Shown: positions 25,212 through 31,337, counted from the first letter of the stretch. The stretch is 64,000 nt of DNA from a bacterium (GCA_021790935.1 JAJYFL010000003.1:107001-171000); one strand, 5' to 3'. Notes: generated from the letters alone by a model not told the origin. A program made the numbers and translations.

Positions 25212-25733
25212 ATGCACCGTCCATTCGCCGGTCTCCGGCTAGCAGGCGTCATAGCCGCGTTATGCCTTCTCGCGGGGTGCGCGCAGGCCCGCGCGATCGC
25301 GAACGCGCCCGTCTACGTGCACATGAACGGCTCGAACGATTTTCTGGAGCCCATCGTCGCGGTACGGCCCGGCGAACCCGTCGTCTTCGTCAACCAGGAC
25401 ACCGGGATGCACACCATCGTCGGTTACGATCCGCTGACCGGGGCGCCGGATGCGGCCATCGACGGGATGGTTGCCGGCACGCCCGGGGCGGGGCATCACC
25501 TCCCTACCTACACCGTGCGATTGACCAAGCCAGGCGTCTACGCGTACTATTGCTCGGTGCACGCCGTGCTCCTCAAAACCTTTGACCACGCGGTCCAGCC
25601 CGCCCACAAGCCCGGCGCGGACGGGTTAGGATCGATGGCCGGCTACATCATCGTCACGACGGATCCGGCTCTACCCAAGAGCAACCCACCGACCAGCAGG
25701 GAGCGAATCGTCCCCGGCTATTTCGGAGGCTGA
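25212..25733 (+). CDS. Cupredoxin (plastocyanin-like) lipoprotein
   Basis: The 173-residue protein has a lipobox (CLLAGC, Cys23) and a cupredoxin fold with candidate copper ligands His67 (DTGMHTI), Cys114 and His117 (YYCSVHA); the axial ligand is unclear. It would be a membrane-tethered electron carrier outside the cytoplasmic membrane. A short hairpin (CCTCT-GTTG-AGAGG) overlaps the Shine-Dalgarno GAGAGGAG. It is the first gene of the tightly spaced operon that ends in the heme-copper reductase, 19 bp before the regulator, and is a plausible electron donor to the CuA subunit. Confidence 0.85.
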   Translation: MHRPFAGLRLAGVIAALCLLAGCAQARAIANAPVYVHMNGSNDFLEPIVAVRPGEPVVFVNQDTGMHTIVGYDPLTGAPDAAIDGMVAGTPGAGHHLPTYTVRLTKPGVYAYYCSVHAVLLKTFDHAVQPAHKPGADGLGSMAGYIIVTTDPALPKSNPPTSRERIVPGYFGG

Positions 25734-25752
25734 GCCGCGTGGGGCCGCCTGC

Positions 25753-26673
25753 GTGATCATCGACGTGCGGACGATCCCGACGTGGCAGCGGCATCCGCGG
25801 ATATTCGCGGCCTTCGACAAGCTCGCCGAGGGTGAGGAACTCCAACTGCGGACCGATCATGAACCGCGGCCGCTACGCGTACAATTCGGCGAGCAACGCA
25901 GCGGTCAATACCTCTGGATTCAGCGCATGCTGGGCAACGGAGACTGGCAAGTGCAGATACGCCGCATCTCCGCCGGCGGCGCGGCCGACCGATGCATCGA
26001 GGACGAGCTAGCACGCTTGGCCGTCTTCGCCGATGCGAGCGAAGCGACGCTGCACAGTCTGGCGGCGATCGCGACCGTGAAGGTGCTGCGCAAACGCCAA
26101 GCGCTTGTCGAGCAAGGCGCAGCCTGGCCGCATCTCGGCGTAGTGCTCGCGGGGACGCTGCAGGCTTTAGTCACGACGCCACTCGGACGCGAGCAGGCGC
26201 TCTACGACATCGTCGGCGGCGAGCCGTTCGGGCACACCTGGCTGCTCGACGGCGGCGTGGCTATCGCCCGCTTCGTGGCGCCCTCCAAAGGGGTGCGTAT
26301 CGCGGTCTTTCCGGCCGGCGCGGTGCGCGCGGCAGCCGACCGCGACCCTGGCTTCGCACGCGCGCTGGCGGTGGCATCGGCGCAGACGACGCGCTCGATA
26401 GCGGAACGCTTCGCCGCCCACCTCTCGCAACCGACGGTATCGCGCGTTGCTGCGGCGCTGCTGCCCTACGCGGCGCCTGAGGCCGGCCTAACTCCCGCGC
26501 TGGCAGGGCTGCGCGGACTAAGCCAAAGCCAGCTGGCAGCGAGCGCCGGTACGGTCAAGGAAGTCGTCAACCGTGCGCTCGCCGAACTCGAACGCGAACG
26601 CGCGATCGTTCGGGCCGAGGGCCACGTCGTACGCTTGGACCGCTCGCTTCTCACCGAGATTGCCAACCGGTGA
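25753..26673 (+). CDS. DUF2249 - Crp/Fnr fusion transcriptional regulator
   Basis: Residues 1-72 form a DUF2249 domain (GTG start; DVRTIPTWQRHPRIFAAFDKL, then DHEPRPLRVQF). Residues about 90-200 resemble a cyclic-nucleotide-binding beta roll (ALVEQGAAWPHLGVVLAGTL). Residues about 215-290 form a Crp-type winged helix (GLSQSQLAASAGTVKEVVNR). DUF2249 genes often sit beside NO and N-oxide reduction genes, and Crp/Fnr relatives such as NNR, DNR and NsrR-independent NO sensors control them, so this may sense NO or redox state. No cysteine cluster typical of Fnr is seen. The fusion of the two domains is unusual. Confidence 0.88.
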   Translation: MIIDVRTIPTWQRHPRIFAAFDKLAEGEELQLRTDHEPRPLRVQFGEQRSGQYLWIQRMLGNGDWQVQIRRISAGGAADRCIEDELARLAVFADASEATLHSLAAIATVKVLRKRQALVEQGAAWPHLGVVLAGTLQALVTTPLGREQALYDIVGGEPFGHTWLLDGGVAIARFVAPSKGVRIAVFPAGAVRAAADRDPGFARALAVASAQTTRSIAERFAAHLSQPTVSRVAAALLPYAAPEAGLTPALAGLRGLSQSQLAASAGTVKEVVNRALAELERERAIVRAEGHVVRLDRSLLTEIANR

Positions 26674-26948
26674 TGCCGGTCAATGCGCCGCCGGCCCGTG
26701 GCCCTTACGATACCGGCATGACCGCATCCAACGAACTCGACGTGCGCGTGATCGAGCCCCGCTACAAGCACCCGACCATCCACTCGCGCTTGGAGGCGCT
26801 TGCGGCCGGCGAAACCCTGCAAATCGTCAACGACCACGACCCGCGCCCGTTACGTTTCGAAATCGACCACGATCGTCCGGGCGTCTTCGCCTGGAACTAC
26901 GTTGAAAGCGGACCGGAAGTCTGGCGCGTAGACATTACGCGCGTATGA
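26673..26948 (+). CDS. DUF2249 protein
   Basis: A small DUF2249 domain (DVRVIEPRYKHPTIHSRLEA, DHDPRPLRFEI, WRVDI). An ATG at 26673 overlaps the regulator stop as TGATG, favouring coupling; a more family-like start is the ATG at 26718, giving 76 residues. Function of the domain is not established. It is often found with hemerythrin-like, NO-reductase and heme-copper genes and has a TusA-like fold according to family descriptions. It is second of four DUF2249 units in this operon. Confidence 0.85.
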   Translation: MPVNAPPARGPYDTGMTASNELDVRVIEPRYKHPTIHSRLEALAAGETLQIVNDHDPRPLRFEIDHDRPGVFAWNYVESGPEVWRVDITRV

Positions 26949-27169
26949 CCGATGTCACGCTCGACGTGCGCCCGATTCTCGCACGCGGCGAAGAACCTTT
27001 CGACGAGATCATGAGCGCGGTGAGCGCGCTGCGCGAGGGCGAACGCCTGCTCTTGATTGCGTCATTCGAGCCGAAGCCGCTCTTTCGTGTGATGGAACGC
27101 AAAGGCTTCACGAACGAATGCCGGCAGGTCGGGCCCGACGAGTACCACGTGCTCTTCGCGCGAGCGTAG
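26945..27169 (+). CDS. DUF2249 protein
   Basis: This 74-residue single-domain DUF2249 protein reads LDVRPILARGEEPFDEIM, then ALREGERLLLIASFEPKPLF, then VGPDEYHVLF. Its start overlaps the previous stop (ATGA). It differs from its neighbours in carrying FEPKPL where they carry DHDPRPL, so the His of the canonical motif is absent. It lies 3 bp before the NnrS-like gene. Confidence 0.85.
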   Translation: MTDVTLDVRPILARGEEPFDEIMSAVSALREGERLLLIASFEPKPLFRVMERKGFTNECRQVGPDEYHVLFARA

Positions 27170-27172
27170 GCC

Positions 27173-28369
27173 GTGCAAGCGATCGACGCGAGCGTCAGCG
27201 ACCCGCGCGGCAGCGGCGGCGTACTGACGCTTGCGCTGGCGTTCTTCGCAGCGGGCTGCGTACTCGCGCTGACGACCGGTGCCTCGCTGGCCGCGCTGCA
27301 TGCCTTTGCCGCTTTCATCGTCCTCGCGTTCGTGGCCGCGAGCAACCAGCTGATTCCGGTCTTGACCGGCGCCGCGGTGAGCGCACCGCGTGCGGTGCTC
27401 GTGGCCGCCGCGCCGCTGGCGGCAGGTTTCGCGTTGCTGATCGCTTCCTTTCTCGGCGCGCCGCTCTTCGAAGGTGCGGGAGTGCTGCTGCTGCTCGGAG
27501 CGGTGGGCTTGGGCGGGTGGACGATCTCGCGCCTGCTGGGCGCTCCGCGCGAGCGCTCGATCGCCGGCATGATCGGCTTTGCCGCCGTCGCATTCGTTGC
27601 CGCCGCAACGATCGGCGCGGCGATGACTTTCGCATTGGCCGGCCGCGTTGCACCGGGTGTGCTTGCGCTCGCGCCGATGCACGCACTGCTCGCGCTGGCG
27701 GCGTTCGCGAGCACGGCCATCGTCGCCGTCTCCGTTCGCTTCGTCCCCATGTTCGCGCTCGCCCACGTCGCCGAGAACCGCCGCCAGGCGATCGCACGGT
27801 GGACGTTCGTCGGGGCTACCGCGTTCGCCGCGGCGTGCTTCGACCGTCCGGACGCGTTACGAGCCGCGCTGGTCGTGATGCTGGGCGCGCTCGGCATCGC
27901 CGGCTCGAGCCATCTGCACGAACTCCACGTACGCCTTCGCAGGCATCTCGACATCAGCTTACGCTATGCGGGTATCGCCTGGATCTGCGCGATGCTGGCC
28001 GTCGCCGCAGCCCTCTCCGCCACCTGGTGGCCGCCCGCCGCCTATGCCGCCGTCGCCCTAGCGGTGCTCGGCTGGGCGAGCATCACCATCGTCGGTTACG
28101 CGTATAAGATTGCCGGATTCCTCGCCTGGCAGTTCGCTCGGAAGCGCAGGCCCGGAGCCGCATTACCCGCATTGAGCGCAGCCGTTCCCGAGCGGTGCGC
28201 GATTATAGGACTTCTCCTGCTAGCCACCGGAACGCTCGCGACCGCCTCGGCCCTCGCAGTCGCTCCAGCATACGTGCGTTGGGCCTTCGTGCCATATGCC
28301 GGCGGCGCGATCGCCGTCTTCGTTTCCTACGCACGGCTGGCGCAGCCGTACGTCGGAGGTACGCGATGA
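27173..28369 (+). CDS. NnrS-like / heme-copper-related polytopic membrane protein
   Basis: The 398-residue protein has about 12 predicted membrane helices and two internally similar segments, one around His43 (LHAFAAFIVLAFVAAS, NQLIPVLTG) and one around His170 (MHALLALAAFASTAIV, VRFVPMF). The His-plus-IP pattern recalls the low-spin heme helix of heme-copper subunits and NnrS proteins, which relieve NO stress. The GTG start lies 3 bp after a DUF2249 gene and the stop overlaps the next DUF2249 start (ATGA). Assignment to NnrS is tentative; a heme-binding membrane protein of this operon is the safer statement. Confidence 0.6.
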   Translation: MQAIDASVSDPRGSGGVLTLALAFFAAGCVLALTTGASLAALHAFAAFIVLAFVAASNQLIPVLTGAAVSAPRAVLVAAAPLAAGFALLIASFLGAPLFEGAGVLLLLGAVGLGGWTISRLLGAPRERSIAGMIGFAAVAFVAAATIGAAMTFALAGRVAPGVLALAPMHALLALAAFASTAIVAVSVRFVPMFALAHVAENRRQAIARWTFVGATAFAAACFDRPDALRAALVVMLGALGIAGSSHLHELHVRLRRHLDISLRYAGIAWICAMLAVAAALSATWWPPAAYAAVALAVLGWASITIVGYAYKIAGFLAWQFARKRRPGAALPALSAAVPERCAIIGLLLLATGTLATASALAVAPAYVRWAFVPYAGGAIAVFVSYARLAQPYVGGTR

Positions 28370-28581
28370 TCGTCGATCTCGACAACCGGGGACTGCCGCC
28401 GCCCGAGCCCATGATGCACATTCTCGAAGCGCTCGACACCTTGGCGCGCGGCGACGAAGTCCGGGCGCTACTCGACCGCGAACCGCTCTTTCTCTATCCG
28501 GAGTTGGACGATCGCGCACTCGCCTACGATTGCTCGCGTAACGACGACGGCAGCTATACGCTCCGGGTACGCTACCGGTGA
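28366..28581 (+). CDS. DUF2249 protein
   Basis: The 71-residue domain reads IVDLDNRGLPPPEPMMHILE, then ALLDREPLFLYPELDDRAL, a DUF2249 variant resembling those paired with heme-copper subunits. It is coupled at both ends, with ATGA overlapping the membrane protein and GTGA overlapping the DUF59 gene. It is the fourth DUF2249 unit within 2.6 kb. Confidence 0.85.
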   Translation: MIVDLDNRGLPPPEPMMHILEALDTLARGDEVRALLDREPLFLYPELDDRALAYDCSRNDDGSYTLRVRYR

Positions 28582-28880
28582 GCGCCGCACGGGAAGAGGA
28601 GGTGCGCGAAGCGCTTGGCGGCGTGATCGATCCGGAGCTCGGAATCGACATCGTTAACCTCGGTCTGGTCTACGGGATCGGCATCGAAGAGAGCGACGTC
28701 GATATCGTCATGACCTTGACGGTGCCCGGATGCCCCATGCACGCCACCATCACCCGCGACGTGGAGTCCGCAGTCCGGGGGTTATCGTGGCCGCGCGAGG
28801 TGCGCGTGCACCTGGTCTTCGAGCCGCCTTGGAGCCCCGAGAAGCTCAGCCCGCAGGGGAGAGCTCTGCTCGGGCGGTAA
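28578..28880 (+). CDS. DUF59/MIP18-family protein (SufT-like)
   Basis: The 100-residue protein shows the full DUF59 signature: VIDPELGIDIVNLGLVYGI, then VDIVMTLTVPGCPMH with the conserved Cys, and VHLVFEPPWSPEKLS. The family helps mature or repair iron-sulfur proteins (SufT, PaaD and MIP18 relatives). The GTG start overlaps the preceding stop. In this operon it could help assemble metal centres, though the reductase itself has heme and copper; a role with the regulator or DUF2249 proteins is also possible. Confidence 0.9.
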   Translation: MSAAREEEVREALGGVIDPELGIDIVNLGLVYGIGIEESDVDIVMTLTVPGCPMHATITRDVESAVRGLSWPREVRVHLVFEPPWSPEKLSPQGRALLGR

Positions 28881-28945
28881 AGCGACGCCGCTTCGGTGAC
28901 CGCCGTCATCGCATTTCACCCCGTCTCTTTGAGAGAATCGAAAAG

Positions 28946-29479
28946 ATGGCTAAAGGACCGCTCGTACTGCCCGCCTTCCTCGTGCTCGCCGTCGCCGCGA
29001 TGGCGGTACTGTTGCTCGTCGCGCTCTCGACGCGGCTCTCGCCGCTTCCGTATTCGCAAGTGCAGCCCGAGGGCTACAAGCTCCGGCGATGGTGGTTCCT
29101 CATACTGAGCGTGGGACTCGTTGCAATCTTTGCCGTGACGTTGCCGTGGTTTCCCTATCCGCCGCTCCGCGCCGCGGCCCACGCGACGAAGAACGGTACG
29201 CTCTACGTGAAGGTCACCGCGCAACAGTATGCCTTCACGATGCCCTCGGTGCTCCCGCTCGACCGGCGTATCGTCTTTGAAGTGACGTCGCTCGACGTAA
29301 ACCACGGCTTCGGCATCTACGATCCGCGCGGACAGATCGTCGCGCAGGTGCAGGCGATGCCCGATTACGTCAACCACTTGCCGGTGACGTTCACCAGGGC
29401 CGGGCGCTACACGGTCCGGTGCCTCGAATACTGCGGCATCGGGCACGCCTCTATGCAAGGGGGCTTCGACGTAAGATGA
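28946..29479 (+). CDS. Heme-copper reductase subunit II with CuA site
   Basis: The 177-residue protein has two N-terminal membrane helices (about residues 6-28 and 49-69) and a C-terminal cupredoxin domain. The CuA ligands are all visible: His120, Cys159, Glu161, Cys163, His167 and Met170 in CLEYCGIGHASM. It accepts electrons outside the membrane and passes them to subunit I. It is shorter than A-type CoxB and closer to small B-type or NO-reductase-associated subunits. Its stop overlaps the subunit I start. The upstream cupredoxin lipoprotein is a plausible donor. Confidence 0.92.
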   Translation: MAKGPLVLPAFLVLAVAAMAVLLLVALSTRLSPLPYSQVQPEGYKLRRWWFLILSVGLVAIFAVTLPWFPYPPLRAAAHATKNGTLYVKVTAQQYAFTMPSVLPLDRRIVFEVTSLDVNHGFGIYDPRGQIVAQVQAMPDYVNHLPVTFTRAGRYTVRCLEYCGIGHASMQGGFDVR

Positions 29480-30909
29480 CGATGGCGCGACGCGTTCTCT
29501 GGACCTACCTCCTCACGGGCATTGCCGTCTTCACGCTGATGATGCTTCTCGGCATCGCAATGCGCGCCGAACAGGCTCGCTGGGTCGCTTTCGGTCCACA
29601 AATCTTCTACGCGATGCTGACGCTACACGGAGCCGGCATGATCACCTCGGTCGCGCTTTGCGGCATGGGCGGTCTCTGGTATCTGATGCGGCGGGAAGGC
29701 GAGCTGAGCGCGGGCGCGGCGCTGGTCGCCTACGCGCTCGTCGTACTGGGCGTCGTCGCCGTGCTGCTGAGTGTCTTCCCGGGAGGCTTCGCGGCCGGAT
29801 GGACGTTCTTGTACCCGCTGCCGTTCGTCGGAGCCACGTGGCCGTCTTGGGCCACCGGCACGTTCTTGACCGGCATCATGCTCGTGAGCCTCGGCTGGAC
29901 GGCATGGTGCTTTCAGATGCTCGGTTTCACGCTGACGCGTTACGGCGGCTGGGCCGGCGCGTCGGGATGGAATCTCGTCTTCAAGCGCGATGCAGACCCG
30001 CACGAGACGCCGCCGCCGCAATCCATCGCAGCCTTCGTCGTGGCGGTCGACGGTATCCTCACCGGAATGGCCGGCATGACCATCGGGGTCGCACTGATCG
30101 CGCACTGGCTCAACCCGTCGGTGCTCGTCGACCCGCTGTGGGCAAAGAACGTGACCTTCTTCTTCGGCCATGCGTTCGCGAATCTGACCATTTACATGGC
30201 GCTTGGGTGGGTCTACGTCGGGATGGCGCGGTACACCGGGCGCGAGTATCACACGACGAAGATCTTGGCGATCGCATGGTGGGCGACGCTGGTTTTCGTC
30301 GCGATTGCGTATTTCCACCACCTCTACATGGACTTCGTACAGTACCGCCCGCTGCAATACGTCGGGGAGATCGCTTCGTATCTCTCGGCGATACCGGCGA
30401 CGGCGGTCTCTGTCTGGGGCTCGATGCTCCTGGTCTACCGGTCGCGGATGCGGTGGACGCTGGGATCGATCTTCCTCTTCACGGGGCTCGTCGGCTGGGT
30501 GGTCGGCGGCATCGGTGCGCTCTTGGATGCCTCGATTCCGCTGAACTTCGACCTGCATAACACGCTCTGGGTGCCCGCGCACTTTCACACCTATCTTCTC
30601 GGCGGCGTCTTTCTCTTCGCGCTCGGCCTGATCTATATGCAACTCGAAGAGCGCTCGGGCAGATGCTCGCCGCCGCTTCTGCGTTGGATCGTCGGGCTCA
30701 CCACGTTCGGCGGTATGACCGTATTCTTGCTCGGTTTCTATGTGGCCGGCGCGAACGGCGTCCCTCGCCGTTACGCGGTCGAGCCGGCTCCGGGACCGCT
30801 AACGGCCTCGTGGGCTACCGTGGGAGCGCTGCTGCTCCTGCTCGGGTTGATCGTCGTCTTGATCGAGGCGATCCGGCTTGCACGATTACCTGCGGAGGAC
30901 CCGGCGTGA
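29476..30909 (+). CDS. Heme-copper superfamily subunit I, probable nitric oxide reductase type
   Basis: The 477-residue protein has about 12-13 membrane helices. All six metal-binding histidines are present: His51 (LHGAGM), His232 (FGHAFANLTIY), His281 and His282 (YFHHLYMD), His369 and His371 (VPAHFHTYL). The tyrosine that crosslinks to the first CuB histidine in A- and B-type oxygen reductases (His+4) is Asn236. The cbb3-type alternative, six residues before the HH pair, is Val275. Lack of both argues against O2 reduction and fits a B-type-derived NO reductase with CuA subunit. The start overlaps subunit II (ATGA). Confidence 0.88.
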   Translation: MTMARRVLWTYLLTGIAVFTLMMLLGIAMRAEQARWVAFGPQIFYAMLTLHGAGMITSVALCGMGGLWYLMRREGELSAGAALVAYALVVLGVVAVLLSVFPGGFAAGWTFLYPLPFVGATWPSWATGTFLTGIMLVSLGWTAWCFQMLGFTLTRYGGWAGASGWNLVFKRDADPHETPPPQSIAAFVVAVDGILTGMAGMTIGVALIAHWLNPSVLVDPLWAKNVTFFFGHAFANLTIYMALGWVYVGMARYTGREYHTTKILAIAWWATLVFVAIAYFHHLYMDFVQYRPLQYVGEIASYLSAIPATAVSVWGSMLLVYRSRMRWTLGSIFLFTGLVGWVVGGIGALLDASIPLNFDLHNTLWVPAHFHTYLLGGVFLFALGLIYMQLEERSGRCSPPLLRWIVGLTTFGGMTVFLLGFYVAGANGVPRRYAVEPAPGPLTASWATVGALLLLLGLIVVLIEAIRLARLPAEDPA

Positions 30910-31337
30910 ACTCGTCGCGGAGGATCGCCGCCTACCTGATCGGCGCGCTGACCCTGGCGGCGGCGCTCGCACCGCTCGTAAGGAACGAAGACGTTTCGAT
31001 TCCCGAACATCATCTGTTGCATGCCGCGCTGCTCGCAGGAGCCGTTGCGACCGCGCTGCTCGCGAGCCCAGATACCGCGGGAGATCGTAACGGCGCATGG
31101 CTGGTCGCGGTCGTAGGCTCGCCGCTACTCGTCATGTTTCTGATGTGGCCTTCCTCGTACGCATATCTCGACGCGCACCCGATAGCACACGCCGGCGATC
31201 ATCTTTCGATCGCCCTGCTAGGCTTCTTGTGCACCTGGAGCGGACAGCGCTACGCGCGCGGCATCGGGTGGATCGGCGGCATCGCTACGGTTTCAATGGC
31301 CGTCCTGGCCGCCGGCGGTTTCGGCGTCGTTCGCTAG
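30906..31337 (+). CDS. His-rich four-helix membrane protein of the reductase operon
   Basis: The 143-residue protein has about four membrane segments. It carries His36, His37 and His40 in one loop/helix edge (PEHHLLHA) and His91, His95 and His99 in another (DAHPIAHAGDH), an arrangement suited to metal or heme binding. It recalls DUF1404/CtaG-like proteins near heme-copper genes, but I cannot assign a family firmly. The GTG start overlaps the subunit I stop. It may be an assembly factor or accessory subunit. The TAG stop is formed by the tip of repeat copy C. Confidence 0.7.
   Translation: MNSSRRIAAYLIGALTLAAALAPLVRNEDVSIPEHHLLHAALLAGAVATALLASPDTAGDRNGAWLVAVVGSPLLVMFLMWPSSYAYLDAHPIAHAGDHLSIALLGFLCTWSGQRYARGIGWIGGIATVSMAVLAAGGFGVVR

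What the first reader, a model, noticed from the sequence alone, without database searches (positions are those of the whole stretch)
25212..31337. Ten-gene operon for a probable unconventional nitric oxide reductase
Seen: cupredoxin lipoprotein, DUF2249-Crp regulator, three DUF2249 proteins, an NnrS-like membrane protein, DUF59, CuA subunit II, heme-copper subunit I and a His-rich membrane protein follow each other, mostly with overlapping stop/start codons. Known: DUF2249, NnrS and Crp/NNR regulators associate with NO and N-oxide metabolism. Inference: the operon is an NO detoxification or respiration unit with its own electron donor and regulator. I am not aware of a description of this exact set.
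Basis: partly seen in the sequence, partly recalled or inferred. Interest (0 to 1): 0.85.

Follow-up and report, generated by a model that had tools for sequence, protein, structure and literature searches.

The report
sNOR-type nitric oxide reductase operon
A bacterium of the phylum Vulcanimicrobiota (Eremiobacterota) carries a ten-gene operon that joins a known but biochemically unproven kind of nitric oxide reductase to an accessory gene set that elsewhere sits beside other nitric oxide reductases, which is new indirect evidence that this enzyme family really works on nitric oxide.

Summary
The ten genes are real and where stated. Subunit I is not a new kind of NO reductase: it belongs to the sNOR family ('qCuANOR type II'). 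It clusters with the published Ruegeria pomeroyi sNOR, apart from A-, B- and C-family O2 reductases (SH-aLRT 100). Asn replaces the A/B-family cross-link Tyr in 75 of 75 rows, and the C-family Tyr is absent too. The core (CuA subunit II, subunit I, and a third membrane protein that I identify as CtaG-like) is found in 60 loci across many phyla. The cassette DUF2249, DUF2249, g5, DUF2249, DUF59 plus a DUF2249-Crp regulator recurs in other genera. In Rhizobium etli, Ensifer and Mesorhizobium its counterpart lies beside norCBQD, nnrS, nirK or nosZ, which ties the operon to NO. The 'NnrS-like' protein is not Pfam NnrS; its low-confidence model has a NorB/heme-copper-oxidase fold. No convincing NirK, NirS or NosZ was found in the genome, so scavenging of outside NO is likelier than full denitrification. 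NO reductase activity is inferred, not shown; high-affinity O2 reduction is the main rival. New variant of a known kind, moderate interest.

The parts
25212..25733 (+). g1: cupredoxin lipoprotein (173 aa), possible electron donor; lipobox LAGC, type-1 Cu ligands H67, C114, H117, no Met at the usual axial place
   Evidence: PF00127 E 9e-4, under cut-off; best PDB match is a Cu nitrite reductase entry whose C-terminal cupredoxin domain aligns, then plastocyanins; homologues found only in the genus
25753..26673 (+). g2: DUF2249 fused to a Crp/Fnr-type regulator (306 aa)
   Evidence: PF10006 2.7e-20, cNMP_binding, HTH_Crp_2; the same fusion lies next to sNOR in L057, L059, L062, L066, L067, L068, L069, L071
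26670..26948 (+). g3: DUF2249 protein (92 aa from GTG; 76 aa from ATG 26718)
   Evidence: PF10006 1.5e-26
26945..27169 (+). g4: DUF2249 protein (74 aa)
   Evidence: PF10006 9.7e-19
27173..28369 (+). g5: polytopic membrane protein (398 aa), heme-copper-oxidase-like fold, invariant H43 and H170
   Evidence: No Pfam match; AF2 model pLDDT 64, pTM 0.66; Foldseek best matches NorB 4xyd_A 5.3e-4 and 3o0r_B 9.1e-4, then cbb3; homologue beside norCBQD and nirK in R. etli and Ensifer
28366..28581 (+). g6: DUF2249/TusA-like protein (71 aa)
   Evidence: PF10006 4.3e-17
28578..28880 (+). g7: DUF59 / SufT-like Fe-S assembly protein (100 aa)
   Evidence: PF01883 4.3e-23
28946..29479 (+). g8: CuA subunit II (NorS-like, 177 aa), two N-terminal helices, CuA motif CLEYCGIGHASM
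   Evidence: PF00116 5.8e-8; helices 7-25 and 51-69; CuA ligands conserved in relatives; 33% to R. pomeroyi and 43% to T. roseum subunit II
29476..30909 (+). g9: heme-copper subunit I (NorY-like, 477 aa); H51, H232, H281, H282, H369, H371 present, Asn236 at the cross-link Tyr position
   Evidence: PF00115 8.6e-48; tree; residue columns
30906..31337 (+). g10: CtaG-like four-helix membrane protein (143 aa), invariant HHxxH, Tyr85, H95xxxH99
   Evidence: A6 alignment; 3 of 28 members match Caa3_CtaG, best 2.5e-5; in register with T. roseum CtaG, p 0.001

Best explanation
The operon encodes an NO-scavenging unit built round an sNOR-type heme-copper NO reductase. The DUF2249-Crp regulator switches the operon in response to NO or low O2 (inferred). 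Electrons come from the cupredoxin or a cytochrome c (inferred) to the CuA centre of subunit II and then to the low-spin heme and heme/CuB site of subunit I (ligands present), where two NO are reduced to N2O (inferred from the Asn-for-Tyr active site and the family). The CtaG-like g10 helps insert copper (inferred). The cassette of small DUF2249 proteins, g5 and DUF59 protects, repairs or assembles metal centres, or relays the NO signal (inferred from its company with NO reductases). With no canonical NO-producing nitrite reductase found, the likeliest use is removal of outside NO.
For: Clade with R. pomeroyi sNOR apart from A-, B- and C-family references, SH-aLRT 100. Asn at the A/B cross-link Tyr column in 75 of 75 rows and no Tyr at the C-family column; Asn is the published sNOR/CuANOR residue (PMC8756737). 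Two helices in subunit II and a short subunit I fit qCuANOR type II (PMC3475470). Counterpart of the cassette beside norCBQD, nnrS, nirK and NnrR-type Crp in R. etli and Ensifer, and near nnrS and nosRZ in Mesorhizobium. DUF2249-rich genomes co-occur with sNOR (10 of 14 versus 5 of 46, p 2.7e-5; genera 6 of 10 versus 4 of 40, p 0.002). DUF2249 within 10 kb of 6 of 18 sNOR loci versus 1 of 47 other oxidase loci (p 0.0013). COG4309 linked earlier to nor genes and to NnrR/NsrR regulons (PMC1274295). RIC and hemerythrin genes near planctomycete sNOR.
Against: No biochemical proof for any sNOR: transcription in N. europaea fits a high-affinity oxidase (PMC6967387). All other residues needed for O2 chemistry except the Tyr are present. 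The full ten-gene set is confined to the genus. No conserved operator was found. Sequences of eNOR, bNOR and gNOR were not in the tree. No convincing NirK, NirS or NosZ in the genome, so the NO source is unknown.
Confidence: 0.72

Rival explanations
1. It is a high-affinity O2 reductase of the sNOR type, made at low O2; the neighbouring NO-linked genes only protect the cell or the enzyme.
For: sNOR transcripts rise 2.7- to 10.8-fold in O2-limited N. europaea and an oxidase role was proposed (PMC6967387). All heme and CuB ligands are conserved. Invariant Tyr240 and Tyr247 lie on the same helix as the CuB ligand His232.
Against: Neither the A/B-type nor the C-type cross-link Tyr is present in any of 75 rows. 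The genome already has two other full-length COX1 genes; the one that I aligned, L120, groups with the B-family reference and has the Tyr. DUF2249 association is rare for other oxidase loci, and the cassette accompanies cNOR in rhizobia.
Confidence: 0.2
2. The enzyme reduces NO, but as part of energy-conserving respiration in a denitrification chain rather than detoxification.
For: Respiratory-type architecture with CuA and a cupredoxin; the same cassette sits in full denitrification islands of rhizobia.
Against: No convincing NirK, NirS or NosZ in a 98.8% complete genome. Published tables give sNOR no proton channel (PMC8756737), and ba3 Tyr244 of the K channel is replaced here.
Confidence: 0.2
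3. The ten genes are two neighbouring units, an sNOR core and an unrelated DUF2249 cassette, brought together by chance.
For: In G037-G039 the cassette and sNOR lie apart in the same genome; a 65-nt gap separates g7 and g8 in the window; the full set is genus-specific.
Against: The two recur together in L059 of another genus in a different arrangement, and beside a broken sNOR subunit I in G112; genome-level co-occurrence p 2.7e-5.
Confidence: 0.05

Closest known systems
sNOR (norSY-senC-orf1) of Nitrosomonas and Ruegeria (Silicibacter) pomeroyi; qCuANOR type II of Bacillus and Geobacillus
   Same: Subunit I clade, Asn at the Tyr position, CuA subunit II with two helices, short subunit I, small polytopic third protein
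   Different: CtaG-like g10 in place of the SenC/SCO gene and orf1; joined to the DUF2249-g5-DUF59 cassette, a DUF2249-Crp regulator and a cupredoxin; g10 shows no homology to the R. pomeroyi orf
DUF2249 - hypothetical - DUF2249 - metal-sulfur cluster assembly factor genes between norCBQD and nnrS-nirK in Rhizobium etli p42f and Ensifer canadensis pT173d
   Same: Same families in the same order, with a g5 homologue (22% identity) and a Crp-type regulator close by
   Different: There the NO reductase is cNOR; a separate true NnrS is present; the Crp has no recorded DUF2249 fusion
bNOR / qCuANOR type I of Bacillus azotoformans
   Same: CuA subunit II and Asn at the Tyr position (PMC3475470)
   Different: Type I has a longer subunit I with 13 helices and one helix in subunit II; the window has 477 aa and two helices. 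No type I sequence was available for the tree.
NnrS (PF05940)
   Same: Polytopic protein of NO-linked clusters; a weak colinear profile match with an R-x-x-P-x-F motif in register
   Different: g5 gets no Pfam match, and R. etli, Ensifer and Mesorhizobium each have a separate NnrS near the g5 homologue

Membership tests
sNOR (qCuANOR type II) | Subunit I clusters with a published sNOR, apart from O2 reductases | tested here: met
   Clade of 77 with R. pomeroyi, SH-aLRT 100
sNOR (qCuANOR type II) | Asn at the cross-link Tyr position | tested here: met
   N236, Asn in 75 of 75 rows and in both sNOR-type references; rule from PMC8756737
sNOR (qCuANOR type II) | CuA subunit II with two N-terminal helices and short subunit I | tested here: met
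   Helices 7-25 and 51-69, CuA ligands complete, subunit I 477 aa
sNOR (qCuANOR type II) | SenC/SCO gene in the operon | tested here: not met
   None of the ten ORFs is SCO; SCO and another membrane protein are found with the Bacteroidota-type and R. pomeroyi loci. I treat this as an accessory, variable feature.
sNOR (qCuANOR type II) | NO reductase activity | not testable with these tools
   Not proven for the family either (PMC6967387, PMC11388526)
eNOR / gNOR | Gln (eNOR) or Asp (gNOR) at the Tyr position | tested here: not met
   Asn
bNOR (qCuANOR type I) | Subunit I with 13 helices and about 560 aa; one helix in subunit II | tested here: not met
   477 aa and two helices; no bNOR sequence in the tree
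A-, B- or C-family O2 reductase | Cross-link Tyr on helix VI (A, B) or helix VII (C) | tested here: not met
   N236 and V275
NnrS (g5) | Match to PF05940 | tested here: not met
   No match for g5 or ten relatives; profile comparison p 0.028 only
Heme-copper oxidase fold (g5) | Twelve-helix subunit I fold | tested here: inconclusive
   Foldseek to NorB and cbb3, TMq 0.63-0.67, from a model of pLDDT 64; sequence link to CcoN depends on distant members (versus 117)
Caa3_CtaG (g10) | Match to PF09678 and its His/Tyr motifs | tested here: inconclusive
   3 of 28 members match, best 2.5e-5, the window member does not; motifs in register with T. roseum CtaG, p 0.001

The most novel reading that the evidence does not exclude
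DUF2249, g5 and DUF59 form an uncharacterised NO-response cassette that serves unrelated NO reductases (cNOR in rhizobia, sNOR here); g5 is a catalytically silent protein of the heme-copper-oxidase fold that has kept only a bis-His (H43, H170) heme site and acts as NO or heme sensor, or cofactor carrier, upstream of the DUF2249-Crp regulator.
Probability: 0.3. Interest if true: 0.7.

Novelty: new variant of a known kind. Interest (0 to 1): 0.5.

Why it matters
Whether sNOR reduces NO or O2 is open and bears on nitrous oxide budgets, because these genes are usually annotated as cytochrome c oxidases. Here the enzyme is wired to a regulator and a cassette that otherwise accompany cNOR and nirK, which argues for NO and offers a compact system to test. 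It also points to a wide branch of sNOR with a CtaG-like third gene, common in acid-mine, peat and soil genomes, and to an unstudied cassette conserved from Vulcanimicrobiota and Bacteroidota to rhizobia.

Tried and rejected
NnrS identity of g5: PF05940 gave no match in 60 genomes, though the control genomes were silent too; a true NnrS found through the loci and nine from plasmids gave only a weak profile match. Link of g5 to cbb3 CcoN by sequence: E 1.5e-6 with a mixed alignment but nothing with orthologues only, so I rest on fold alone and mark it inconclusive. FNR/DNR-type operator upstream of g1 and g8: no conserved palindrome, scattered hits in some relatives only. g10 against the third membrane proteins of R. 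pomeroyi and L102: no support. Denitrification genes in the genome: none convincing. Defence-system models: none. A DOI that I tried for the paper defining eNOR, bNOR, gNOR and nNOR is not held, and no named eNOR, gNOR or bNOR sequences were retrieved.

Full report
Observation. Family scans confirm DUF2249 in four of them, one fused to a Crp/Fnr-type regulator, a DUF59 protein, a CuA subunit II and a heme-copper subunit I. ORFs on either side (judged by eye: NUDIX and glycosyltransferase types upstream, acetyltransferase and polysaccharide deacetylase types downstream) look unrelated. The window lies in a 2.65-Mb, 98.8% complete genome. Named relatives are Vulcanimicrobiota (Eremiobacterota, WPS-2), and two species of the same genus keep all ten genes in order.

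Subunit I. All heme and CuB histidines are present. The place of the A/B-family cross-link tyrosine (ba3 Tyr237) is Asn236, and the C-family tyrosine column is Val275; no Tyr stands at either place in 75 rows. A published table gives Asn for sNOR and CuANOR, Gln for eNOR, Asp for gNOR and Tyr for oxygen reductases (PMC8756737). The best named relatives in the plasmid collection are Thermomicrobium roseum (41%) and Ruegeria pomeroyi (40%); the latter, formerly Silicibacter, is in that table as an sNOR holder. In a maximum-likelihood tree of 84 rows, the window, 74 relatives, R. pomeroyi and T. roseum form one clade apart from A-, B- and C-family references (SH-aLRT 100; quick search, long branches among the references). 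A short subunit I and two N-terminal helices in subunit II fit 'qCuANOR type II' rather than type I/bNOR (PMC3475470). I therefore file it as sNOR, with the reservation that no bNOR, eNOR or gNOR sequence was in the tree.

The core. Subunit II, subunit I and g10 are together in 60 of 84 loci, from Vulcanimicrobiota, Planctomycetota, Verrucomicrobiota, Methylomirabilota, Acidobacteriota, Bacillota, Actinomycetota and Deinococcota. g10 has invariant HHxxH, Tyr85, His95 and His99. Three of 28 members reach Caa3_CtaG (best 2.5e-5), and the motifs align in register with a CtaG-annotated protein of T. roseum (p 0.001). Bacteroidota and R. pomeroyi have SCO and another membrane protein instead. Copper insertion is the likeliest role of g10; this is inference.

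The cassette. DUF2249, DUF2249, g5, DUF2249, DUF59 and a DUF2249-Crp gene occur in this order in G037 and its congeners, on contig stretches away from sNOR; variants occur in other genera, among them G112 beside a truncated sNOR subunit I, and L059 next to an intact sNOR with the regulator turned round. In Bacteroidota L110 and L116 a related cassette with an Rrf2-type gene lies near sNOR. In Rhizobium etli p42f and Ensifer canadensis, DUF2249, a g5 homologue, DUF2249 and a metal-sulfur cluster assembly factor lie between norCBQD and nnrS-nirK-Crp; in Mesorhizobium loti g5 and DUF2249 lie between nnrS and nosRZ. Rodionov et al. 2005 noted COG4309 (DUF2249, by my own knowledge) co-transcribed with nor genes and in NnrR and NsrR regulons, and thought it relevant to NO reductase (PMC1274295). 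DUF2249 genes of Haloferax mediterranei are induced in denitrification (PMC11218638), and DrpA of Thermus is a DUF2249 protein of nitrate respiration (PMC6282519).

Statistics. Among 60 relatives, three or more DUF2249 genes are found in 10 of 14 sNOR genomes and 5 of 46 others (p 2.7e-5); by genus, 6 of 10 versus 4 of 40 (p 0.002). A DUF2249 gene lies within 10 kb of 6 of 18 sNOR loci and 1 of 47 other oxidase loci (p 0.0013). Related species are not independent, so the genus figures are the safer ones; the cut-off of three genes was chosen after seeing the data.

g5. No family library names it. The AF2 model has low confidence (pLDDT 64, pTM 0.66), but Foldseek places it with NorB of cNOR, cbb3 and other subunit I structures. 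His43 and His170 are invariant in nine homologues reaching to rhizobia. A sequence match to CcoN was lost when only orthologues were used, and the relation to NnrS is suggestive only.

Mechanism and limits. Shown: gene content and order, family placement of subunit I, ligand residues, loss of both cross-link tyrosines, recurrence of core and cassette. Inferred: NO reduction, electron route, signal of the regulator, role of g10, protection or repair by the cassette. NirK, NirS and NosZ were not convincingly found, which favours removal of outside NO. The chief rival is high-affinity O2 reduction, proposed for the sNOR of N. europaea (PMC6967387).

Noticed in passing
G000:C10:258258-259295 (L166:7190-8323): A second, distant g5-like membrane protein in the same genome lies beside two radical SAM genes close to NirJ1/AhbC and TIGR04053/AhbD heme-biosynthesis families, although no convincing NirS was found.
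   Followed up: partly
L160:8634-9326: In genome G112 the cassette is intact but the neighbouring sNOR subunit I is cut short, as if decaying.
   Followed up: partly
L058, L060, L064, L074: Methylomirabilota, the phylum known for NO-dismutating methane oxidisers, carry sNOR of the same branch as Vulcanimicrobiota; three of the four loci also show g10.
   Followed up: no
L164:11872-12381, L165:4701-5135, L046:12368-12883: Small membrane proteins of 144-171 aa with an H-x-H helix look by eye like a single arc of a heme-copper oxidase; NCBIfam does not name them.
   Followed up: no
window:29476-30909 (subunit I Y240 and Y247): Tyr240 is invariant in the sNOR clade but not in A-, B- or C-family references; it lies two helix turns from the CuB ligand His232 and might be a proton donor.
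   Followed up: no
L185:5928-7181, L187:6257-7549: DUF2249-Crp fusions also occur away from sNOR, next to g5-like genes, in other genera of the phylum; most genomes hold at least one DUF2249 gene in a long frame.
   Followed up: partly
L075:4636-14537: A planctomycete sNOR locus is surrounded by Crp, DUF1858, DUF59, DUF2249, cupin, a 397-aa unnamed protein, hemerythrin and RIC (ScdA_N plus hemerythrin) genes, an NO-stress-like set.
   Followed up: partly
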